A stretch of 64,000 nt of DNA from Taxawa tesnikishii (nom. ined.) (taxonomy: Eukaryota; Ascomycota; Dothideomycetes; Dothideales), in assembly GCA_030247885.1 (NCBI GenBank), contig JAPDRO010000024.1, positions 494,688 through 558,687 of the forward strand, read 5' to 3'. The position numbers and the translations under genes are program-made. Of the stretch, positions 57,000-58,480 are shown piece after piece (positions within the stretch are counted from its first letter, which is position 1; each line of letters begins with the position of its first letter). The notes below the pieces were generated by a model. It was not told the origin of the DNA. It worked only from the letters and a program-made list of their open reading frames with translations, and did not search any database.

Positions 57000-58314
57000 G
57001 TTTCGGGGCTTTGGCATCGGAGGTCATGATGGCCCTGTCCGGAGCTAGTATTCGGTTTAGCCTTGTCCAGCAACTTCAGAATGCCGAGCAACTAGATGGT
57101 CTGGTATGCCTGTGGAATGATTCTTCCGACGCTAGAATTGTACGCCAGGCTTATGAATCGACTGCAGAGGCGCTCGCTCAGTTACAGACAGCAGCTACAA
57201 TGAATTTTGGCCCGCCACTGGTTTGGGTGACGCGCGAAGCAGTGGGCGTCCGCAATTTTACGGTGATTGTGAGCATGACAAGGACAACCTCGCCAAGGAA
57301 AAGGGCCTGGGGGCCGCGCCGCTGTGGGCGTTGATGCGTACGGCCCGCAACGAGTACCCAGAACTGCGACTTCGCCTCATTGATCTTAGTGAGAAGAAAG
57401 ATTTGCATAGGGCCTTTGTTCTAGCGCTGATGCTATACGGCGAACTTGAAAGTAGCATCCGAAATAGGCAGCTGCTCGTGCCTCAGATACAACGGGCACG
57501 TGTCAAGCAGCGAGAAACATGGGGTCGGCTTCAACAAGGCGCCGTTTAGAACATAGGCGGCGTTGGCGGTATTGACAAGCCGGTAGCTAAGTGGCTGACG
57601 AGCGCTCACCACGCCCATAACTTGGTACTAACGCCGCGCTACGGTATGGAAGCTCCCGGCGCAAAAGCCTTGGGGTAAACTGGCGCAACTCGGCGCTACA
57701 TCTACGGTTATCGCCTATGAGATTAGCGACCTCGAGAGTCTAAGGTAACTCATGGCAGTGTTTAGTATCGGAAGGCCGCTGCGTGGTGTGATCCACGTCG
57801 TTGGTATTGTTAACAATAGTGTGTTCTCTCAACTATGACGCCGGAGCGATGCGCCACAGTCTTTGCGCCTAAGGTGGGTGGCTGTTGGCATCTGCATTAG
57901 CTAACTCGAGATATGGATCCGAACCTCTTTACGATGTTCTCGTTCATTTCGGGCCTCTTGGGAATGCCGGGTCTAGGCAATCATGCAGCCGCCAACACCT
58001 TCCTTAATCTGCTCGCTCACCTACGCCGTGGCCAGGGTCTGCCGACCACTTCTGTTGCATACAGTGTCTAGGGAGACACTATGGCGACCGGGCTGACGAG
58101 CAAAAGTACCCTTATTCACCCGGCTGAATTTGGCCTCGATTCGCTCATACCTGGAGACGGCCGAAATTTGCTCGAGGAGGCGGTGCTTAGTGGCCGTGCG
58201 CTTACTGTTGCCGCAACACTCGATACAAAACGGCTCCGCAACTGCTTGTTGGAGGAAGGGGAGGAGAACGGCGAGATACCACGGTTCTATCATACGCTGT
58301 TGCAACAACACGGT

Positions 58315-58345
<31 letters not shown>

Positions 58346-58480
58346 GCCGCAACAGCACGCAACAAGAGGAACGAGGTTCCCATCTACGTGAGCGCTGGCG
58401 GAGCGGCTCCCGAGAAGCACGCCGTTATCGTATCCGCCTTTGTGCCCGGTTGTCCCTTTACTCCTGCCGAGCGCATTGTC
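57000..58480 (+). pseudogene. decayed bacterial-type modular polyketide synthase fragment (KR region)
   Basis: Pieces in several frames read in order: YESTAEALAQLQ ... GPPLVWVTREAVG; GAAPLWALMRTARNEYPELR ... LLVPQIQRA; GVGGIDKPVAKWLTSAHHA ... YGMEAPGAKALG; KLAQLGAT; RPLRGVIHVVGI; MTPERCATVFAPKVGG; RDMDLNLFTMFSFISGLLG (then MPGLGNHAAANTFLNLLAH); GQGLPTTSVAYSV; EEAVLSGRALTVAATLD; and APEKHAVIVSAFV at the start of a carrier-protein-like linker. This is the structural plus catalytic ketoreductase and the lead-in to an ACP of a type I modular synthase; the GMEAPGA, TPERxA and GLPATSxAYGxW signatures are bacterial, not those of fungal iterative HR-PKS. In-frame TAG/TAA stops and indels break it. 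No KS, AT or intact ACP is present. Donor lineage is inference. Confidence 0.72.
58312..58350 (+). repeat. (AGC)n trinucleotide microsatellite
   Basis: About ten AGC copies followed by GCC, inside the polyketide synthase fragment where it encodes poly-Ser. It probably expanded after the gene lost function. Confidence 0.9.

What the first reader, a model, noticed from the sequence alone, without database searches (positions are those of the whole stretch)
57000..58480. Remnant of a bacterial-style modular polyketide synthase in a fungal genome
The sequence still shows a near-complete ketoreductase region with signatures typical of bacterial modular type I synthases (GMEAPGA, TPERCATVFAPKV, GMPGLGNHAAANTF, GQGLP, SGRALTVAATLD, APEKHAV), unlike fungal iterative synthases. 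It has no introns, is broken by stops that look like C-to-T or G-to-A changes plus indels, and lies at the edge of a RIP-ed block. It looks like an acquired gene that was later inactivated and trimmed. Lateral gain is inference.
Basis: partly seen in the sequence, partly recalled or inferred. Interest (0 to 1): 0.78.

Follow-up and report, generated by a model that had tools for sequence, protein, structure and literature searches.

The report
Dead fragment of bacterial-type NRPS-PKS gene
A filamentous fungus carries the broken ketoreductase part of what was probably a peptide-polyketide hybrid enzyme gene of bacterial ancestry, a kind of gene whose passage from bacteria into fungi is already in print, so this is mainly one more relic of a known event.

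Summary
Window 56889-58314 is the damaged ketoreductase (KR) part of a type I synthase, with six in-frame stops and at least four frame changes. Both KR halves are present with no enoylreductase between them.

The closest relatives found are not ordinary multi-module synthases but NRPS-PKS hybrids of Streptomyces with a terminal reductase. Four pieces searched apart each have their top hits in this family. On the two pieces that had outgroups the window groups with it at 0.98 and 0.956 support.

Hybrids of bacterial ancestry in Ascomycota are already described (NPS7/PKS24, PMC3226686; SwnK, A-T-KS-AT-KR-ACP-R, PMC8403587), and three Streptomyces hybrids are reported as sister to fungal ones (PMC6854747). 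The likeliest reading is a truncated, dead member of that lineage. No second copy, matching KS or rest of the gene was found. G+C is 55.6% against 70-73% in the Streptomyces loci, so recent contamination is unlikely. RIP did not clearly kill it: against the usual limits one of three indices passes. No fungal homologue was searchable, so membership of the named fungal family is inferred.

The parts
56889..57020 (+). weakly matching linker ahead of the KR structural half (residues 2786-2829 of the Streptomyces hybrid P0001), frame 3, one stop
   Evidence: tblastn E 0.005-0.08 for four of nine query proteins, weaker or only in a combined score for four, none for L070; stop at 56913
56969..57250 (+). 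start of the KR structural (non-catalytic Rossmann) half, frame 2, stop at 56978
   Evidence: 48-51% identity to seven of eight hybrid-family proteins, 45% to the eighth, 68-84 bits; piece A hits only the family among 26 bacterial loci at >=70% coverage
57301..57546 (+). rest of the KR structural half, frame 1, ends at stop 57547
   Evidence: 46.6-58.5% to the hybrid family, 63-77 bits; 74 bits to Streptomyces sp. Caat 7-52 against 53 for the next plasmid record; PF22953 SpnB_Rossmann E 0.00065, below its cut-off; no significant PDB match, best E 0.27
57553..57835 (+). catalytic KR half, first part, frame 1 then frame 2, stop at 57746; no enoylreductase between the two KR halves
   Evidence: PF08659 E 0.0017, below cut-off, on 57553-57672; 46-59% over 29-39 aa to the hybrid family; tblastn 57659-57835 frame 2
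57835..58070 (+). catalytic KR half, core, frame 1, stops at 57898 and 58069; the catalytic Ser and Tyr columns (roles recalled) do not hold Ser and Tyr
   Evidence: PF08659 E 1.6e-12 on 57904-58068; top KR match of the genome, 81.9 bits; alignment to SpnB
58072..58314 (+). region after the KR core, frame 1; end of the supported match
   Evidence: 41.6-45.9% to eight hybrid proteins; the Streptomyces hybrid is the only match at E <= 1 in 72,556 plasmid records, E 3e-4; tblastn to 58314 with L069
58317..58343 (+). CAG microsatellite directly after the supported match; nothing further downstream is assigned
   Evidence: no carrier or reductase match in the window
55231..56800 (-). HET-domain gene abutting the fragment head to head; the match lacks the first 28 profile positions and a stop separates it from the next ORF, which I take to be the same gene (context, inference)
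   Evidence: PF06985 E 3.2e-19, profile 29-97 of 146, on 56536-56793; no Pfam match on 55234-56532; ORFs
59100..64000 (.). AT-rich, strongly RIP-like block running to the contig end (context)
   Evidence: G+C 0.251, TpA/ApT 1.83, substrate index 0.06, composite 1.77; contig C17 ends at the window end

Best explanation
It is the dead, truncated remnant of an NRPS-PKS hybrid gene of bacterial ancestry, most likely of the lineage already known in Ascomycota as NPS7/PKS24 and SwnK (order A-T-KS-AT-KR-ACP-R). The intact ancestor would have loaded an amino acid (A-T), extended it by a polyketide step (KS-AT), reduced the new keto group with NADPH at the KR, and released the product from the carrier through a terminal reductase. 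Shown here: KR identity, kinship to bacterial hybrids, no enoylreductase between the KR halves, no intron-sized gap, frame damage, no match to the rest of the gene on either side. Inferred: the hybrid nature of the ancestor and its chemistry, membership of the named fungal lineage, and loss by ordinary decay and rearrangement near an AT-rich contig end.
For: PDB ranking of the 54-aa KR core: SpnB 42.4 bits, EryAI about 36, fungal LovB 23.4, rank 25 of 28. Three pieces searched apart in plasmids all have their best hit in one gene, 57.4%, 60.4% and 54.9% identity. Pfam reads that gene as FT-A-MT-T-KS-AT-DH-ER-KR-T-R. 8 of 392 Streptomyces genomes match piece B at E <= 1e-9; 7 of the 8 are collinear hybrids, of which 4 show no ER match, as in the fragment; the eighth (L070) shows no FT, A, MT or R match. 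Ordinary synthases of five actinobacterial genomes gave at most 30.5 bits on piece B against 66.1 for the plasmid hybrid. Trees per piece: window plus the 8 family members at 0.98 (B) and 0.956 (F). The own genome gave no second copy, no other SpnB_Rossmann hit and no matching KS. Literature: PMC3226686 (abstract, introduction, KS section, passages), PMC6854747 (section 10, passages), PMC8403587 (passages).
Against: No fungal NPS7/PKS24 or SwnK sequence could be compared: apart from this genome the collections hold no fungi. A, T, KS, AT, ACP and R are absent from the remnant, so the hybrid nature rests on kinship of the KR alone. I first read a carrier start at 58.4 kb by eye; tested, that piece has only chance-level matches (best E 0.19), and to a part of the relatives before the KR, so it is dropped. 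PMC3226686 names Burkholderiales as donor kin; no Burkholderiales set could be searched. I did not check whether the Streptomyces hybrids found here are the three of PMC6854747. On piece F four other loci (66, 63, 63 and 59 bits) outscore the weakest family member (58 bits), and two bacterial KRs rank below LovB. Trees rest on 53-86 residues; A and G had no outgroup; the outgroup loci were fetched because they, or a locus of the same search, hit piece B or F.
Confidence: 0.7

Rival explanations
1. An independent and later transfer: a Streptomyces-type hybrid (FT-A-MT-T-KS-AT-DH-KR-T-R) entered this fungal lineage directly, apart from the known fungal NPS7/PKS24 and SwnK lineage, and then decayed.
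For: The closest sequences found are Streptomyces hybrids, up to 66% over 53 residues (L067) and 68% over 41 (L069) on piece F; 4 of 7 unnamed Streptomyces hybrids have the same ER-less layout.
Against: The window sits on a long branch, and its G+C (0.556) and third-position G+C (0.57-0.59) are not those of 70-73% G+C loci, so any transfer is old. Known fungal hybrids were not searchable and may be closer.
Confidence: 0.15
2. A remnant of another bacterial-like fungal synthase, such as a 6-MSAS type or the Cochliobolus PKS25 type, without an NRPS part.
For: Such genes exist in fungi (PMC3226686 introduction); only the KR is left here.
Against: Pieces A and G hit only the hybrid family among the 26 bacterial loci searched, and on piece B every family member (63-77 bits) stands above every other locus (at most 53). 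Fungal genes of these types were not compared.
Confidence: 0.09
3. An ordinary fungal highly reducing iterative synthase, degraded.
For: Fungal iterative synthases also have KR domains; LovB is among the PDB matches and outscores two bacterial KRs.
Against: LovB scores 23.4 bits against 42.4 for SpnB; the bacterial-type SpnB_Rossmann model finds nothing else in this genome.
Confidence: 0.03
4. Bacterial contamination joined to the contig by misassembly.
For: The fragment abuts a HET gene that seems truncated and lies near a contig end.
Against: G+C is 0.556 against 0.70-0.73 in the bacterial hybrid loci; six stops and several frame changes are not expected of a live bacterial gene; identity of the larger pieces is about 42-68%.
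Confidence: 0.03

Closest known systems
Streptomyces NRPS-PKS hybrids with terminal reductase (WP_285440276.1 of Streptomyces sp. Caat 7-52, and L063-L069)
   Same: KR sequence, order of the two KR halves, the stretch after the KR core; 4 of the 7 unnamed ones show no ER, like the fragment
   Different: open frames of 3795-4266 residues, loci of 70-73% G+C, with FT, A, MT, T, KS, AT, DH, T and R, none of which is left in the window
Fungal NPS7/PKS24 hybrid lineage (PMC3226686)
   Same: bacterial ancestry inside Ascomycota; no introns in the Cochliobolus, A. niger, Trichophyton and Microsporum genes named there; a KR late in the protein
   Different: not compared by sequence here; only a KR is left; the Chaetomium member has introns; Burkholderiales named as donor kin
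SwnK, swainsonine synthetase (PMC8403587, PMC9030584)
   Same: A-T-KS-AT-KR-ACP-R, so a KR without ER, as here
   Different: intact and in a gene cluster; no cluster partner was recognised among 20 of 62 window ORFs scanned, 10 of which had no Pfam match
Bacterial modular type I synthases (SpnB, EryAI)
   Same: KR fold and motifs
   Different: ordinary modular synthases score below the hybrid family on the variable piece B

Membership tests
Streptomyces-type NRPS-PKS hybrid with terminal reductase | KR groups with the family rather than with other modular KRs | tested here: met
   support 0.98 (piece B) and 0.956 (piece F), 8 family members against 13 and 15 other rows, one identical row dropped from F
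Streptomyces-type NRPS-PKS hybrid with terminal reductase | FT, A, MT, KS, AT, DH and R in one protein | tested here: inconclusive
   absent from the remnant and not found as specific matches elsewhere in the genome; truncation could explain this
Fungal NPS7/PKS24 and SwnK lineage | KR without an enoylreductase inside it | tested here: met
   the two KR halves follow each other in the window
Fungal NPS7/PKS24 and SwnK lineage | A-T-KS-AT before the KR, carrier and R after it | tested here: inconclusive
   none found in the window; the remnant is truncated on both sides
Fungal NPS7/PKS24 and SwnK lineage | closest sequence match is a fungal member | not testable with these tools
   no fungal collection is held
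Fungal NPS7/PKS24 and SwnK lineage | no introns (several members, not all) | tested here: met
   largest unaligned stretch about 50 bases (57250-57301) in the collinear match
Fungal highly reducing iterative PKS | KR closer to fungal than to bacterial KRs | tested here: not met
   LovB 23.4 bits, below 24 of 28 listed PDB sequences and above two bacterial ones and EcPKS1
RIP-inactivated gene | RIP indices beyond their usual limits (recalled: above 0.89, below 1.03, above 0) | tested here: not met
   0.93, 1.21 and -0.27: only the first passes

The most novel reading that the evidence does not exclude
A second, independent passage of an NRPS-PKS hybrid from a Streptomyces-type donor into this fungal lineage, distinct from the published NPS7/PKS24 transfer, now surviving only as a KR relic.
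Probability: 0.15. Interest if true: 0.5.

Novelty: new member of a known kind. Interest (0 to 1): 0.27.

Why it matters
Dead copies inform the loss side of a known bacteria-to-fungus transfer: they would show that the patchy presence of these hybrids comes partly from decay and not only from repeated gain. The KR also gives a marker, apart from the A and KS domains used in print, that points to Streptomyces-type hybrids among the sets that could be searched.

Tried and rejected
Viral contigs gave no relative. A phylum-wide draw of 396 Actinomycetota genomes gave none at E <= 1e-9; that shows rarity at most, since the positive case is the genus draw, 8 of 392. The own genome was searched with both parts of the bacterial hybrid for loose A, KS, AT or R pieces: found were an apparently intact SAT-KS-AT synthase on C3, a degraded synthase on C22, FAS and mitochondrial-type KS, and adenylation or reductase domains at no more than 37% identity over the matches longer than 150 residues. 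Only best candidates are scored there, so a faint relic could be missed. The stretch 58320-59200 has no second copy. A cluster around the fragment was looked for in 20 of the 62 ORFs; 10 of the 20 had no Pfam match, so absence of partners is weak evidence. A paper search for the Streptomyces domain set found none; the accession search found only PMC6854747. No Burkholderiales set could be reached for want of a centre genome.

Rejected: introns as the cause of the stops at 57898 and 58069; RIP as the clear cause; recent contamination; my own eye reading of a carrier start at 58.4 kb. In one search that piece had been cut in the wrong frame and tested nothing. This mend lowered the main confidence from 0.72 to 0.70 and raised the rival without an NRPS part from 0.07 to 0.09.

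Full report
What is there. The window is C17:494688-558687 of a 29.37 Mb genome in 34 contigs and ends at the contig end. That the organism is fungal rests on a HET domain, a synthase with a SAT domain, and a FAS-type chain with ketoacyl synthase and phosphopantetheinyl transferase domains (that these mark filamentous fungi is recalled). The reported motifs are present. Bacterial hybrid proteins align collinearly from 56889 to 58314. The reversed window gives no match better than E 0.52.

State of the gene. Six in-frame stops lie in the matched frames, one of them in the weakly matched start, and the frame changes at least four times. Two stops lie between pieces that are contiguous, to within one residue, in the relatives, so introns do not explain them. 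In the alignment of the KR core with SpnB the catalytic Ser and Tyr columns do not hold Ser and Tyr (the catalytic roles are recalled). No KS, AT or A match lies before the fragment and no carrier or reductase match after it. No second copy was found in the genome. This is a pseudogene fragment.

What it came from. The KR core scores 42.4 bits to SpnB, about 36 to EryAI and 23.4 to the fungal LovB, which ranks 25 of 28; two bacterial KRs rank lower still. The structural half has no significant PDB match (best E 0.27). In 72,556 plasmid records three pieces searched apart each have their best hit in the same gene of Streptomyces sp. Caat 7-52: 57.4%, 60.4% (seven further records tie in identity at lower bit score) and 54.9%. 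On the two variable pieces that gene stands apart: 74 bits against 53 for the next record, and the only match at E <= 1. Pfam reads it as an NRPS-PKS hybrid, FT-A-MT-T-KS-AT-DH-ER-KR-T-R. Of 392 Streptomyces genomes 8 match piece B at E <= 1e-9. Seven hold collinear hybrids, four without an ER match; the eighth shows no FT, A, MT or R match (longest open frame of each locus). Of 396 Actinomycetota genomes none matched at that limit.

Trees. Each piece was treated alone, against 26 bacterial loci, keeping hits over at least 70% of the piece. With midpoint rooting the window joins the eight hybrids at support 0.98 (piece B, 22 rows) and 0.956 (piece F, 24 rows). Pieces A and G hit only the hybrids, so their trees have no outgroup. 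On piece F alone four other loci outscore the weakest hybrid. The other loci were fetched through hits to pieces B or F and are not a random sample.

Is it foreign or contaminating? Fragment G+C is 0.556 against 0.540 for window 1-50000 and 0.70-0.73 for the Streptomyces hybrid loci. Third-position G+C is 0.57-0.59 against 0.62-0.69 in two window ORFs. Long residence in the fungal genome fits better than recent contamination. Read coverage could not be checked.

RIP. The AT block from 59.1 kb is strongly RIP-like (composite index 1.77). The fragment is mixed: TpA/ApT 0.93 and composite -0.27 are each higher than in all 138 overlapping comparison windows, but the substrate index of 1.21 is ordinary and the composite stays below zero. 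RIP may have touched it but is not shown to have killed it.

Comparison with what is known. PMC3226686 (abstract, introduction, KS section and passages seen) reports hybrid NPS7/PKS24 genes of bacterial ancestry in Dothideomycetes, Eurotiomycetes and Sordariomycetes, several without introns though one in Chaetomium has six, with Burkholderiales as donor kin. [quoted passage not shown] I did not check whether those are the ones found here. PMC9030584 (abstract, part 1 of the results, passages seen) treats SwnK as an outcome of that transfer and reports eleven orders with the cluster. PMC8403587 (passages seen) gives SwnK as A-T-KS-AT-KR-ACP-R. The fragment fits the KR of that order. I file it as a probable dead member of a known kind, with direct comparison to the fungal members still missing.

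Limits. No fungal genome other than this one and no Burkholderiales set could be searched. Pieces are short.

Noticed in passing
window 55231-56800: HET-domain match on the minus strand lacks the first 28 profile positions and is cut by a stop from the next ORF; it abuts the synthase fragment head to head, so the junction near 56.85 kb may join two truncated genes.
   Followed up: partly
window 62204-64000: Inverted repeat arms of 75 nt, 89% complementary, 1647 nt apart, inside the AT-rich block at the contig end; could be the ends of a RIP-ed transposon.
   Followed up: no
L034 and L036 (G000:C22:15997-19750): A degraded synthase (KS pieces with stops, weak AT) near the start of contig C22; with one apparently intact synthase on C3 it suggests a genome poor in synthases.
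   Followed up: partly
L046 8647-20883 and L063-L069: Streptomyces hybrid family FT-A-MT-T-KS-AT-DH-(ER)-KR-T-R in 7 of 392 Streptomyces genomes and one plasmid, with and without ER; no product found in the two paper searches made.
   Followed up: partly
window 58370-58492: Piece after the CAG tract has a 15-residue match, 53-60%, to the adenylation-domain part of all eight hybrids, at chance level (best E 0.19); out of order if real.
   Followed up: partly
window 56820-56870: Short tandem repeat of ccgaaccaacgg-like units at the breakpoint between the HET gene and the synthase fragment.
   Followed up: no
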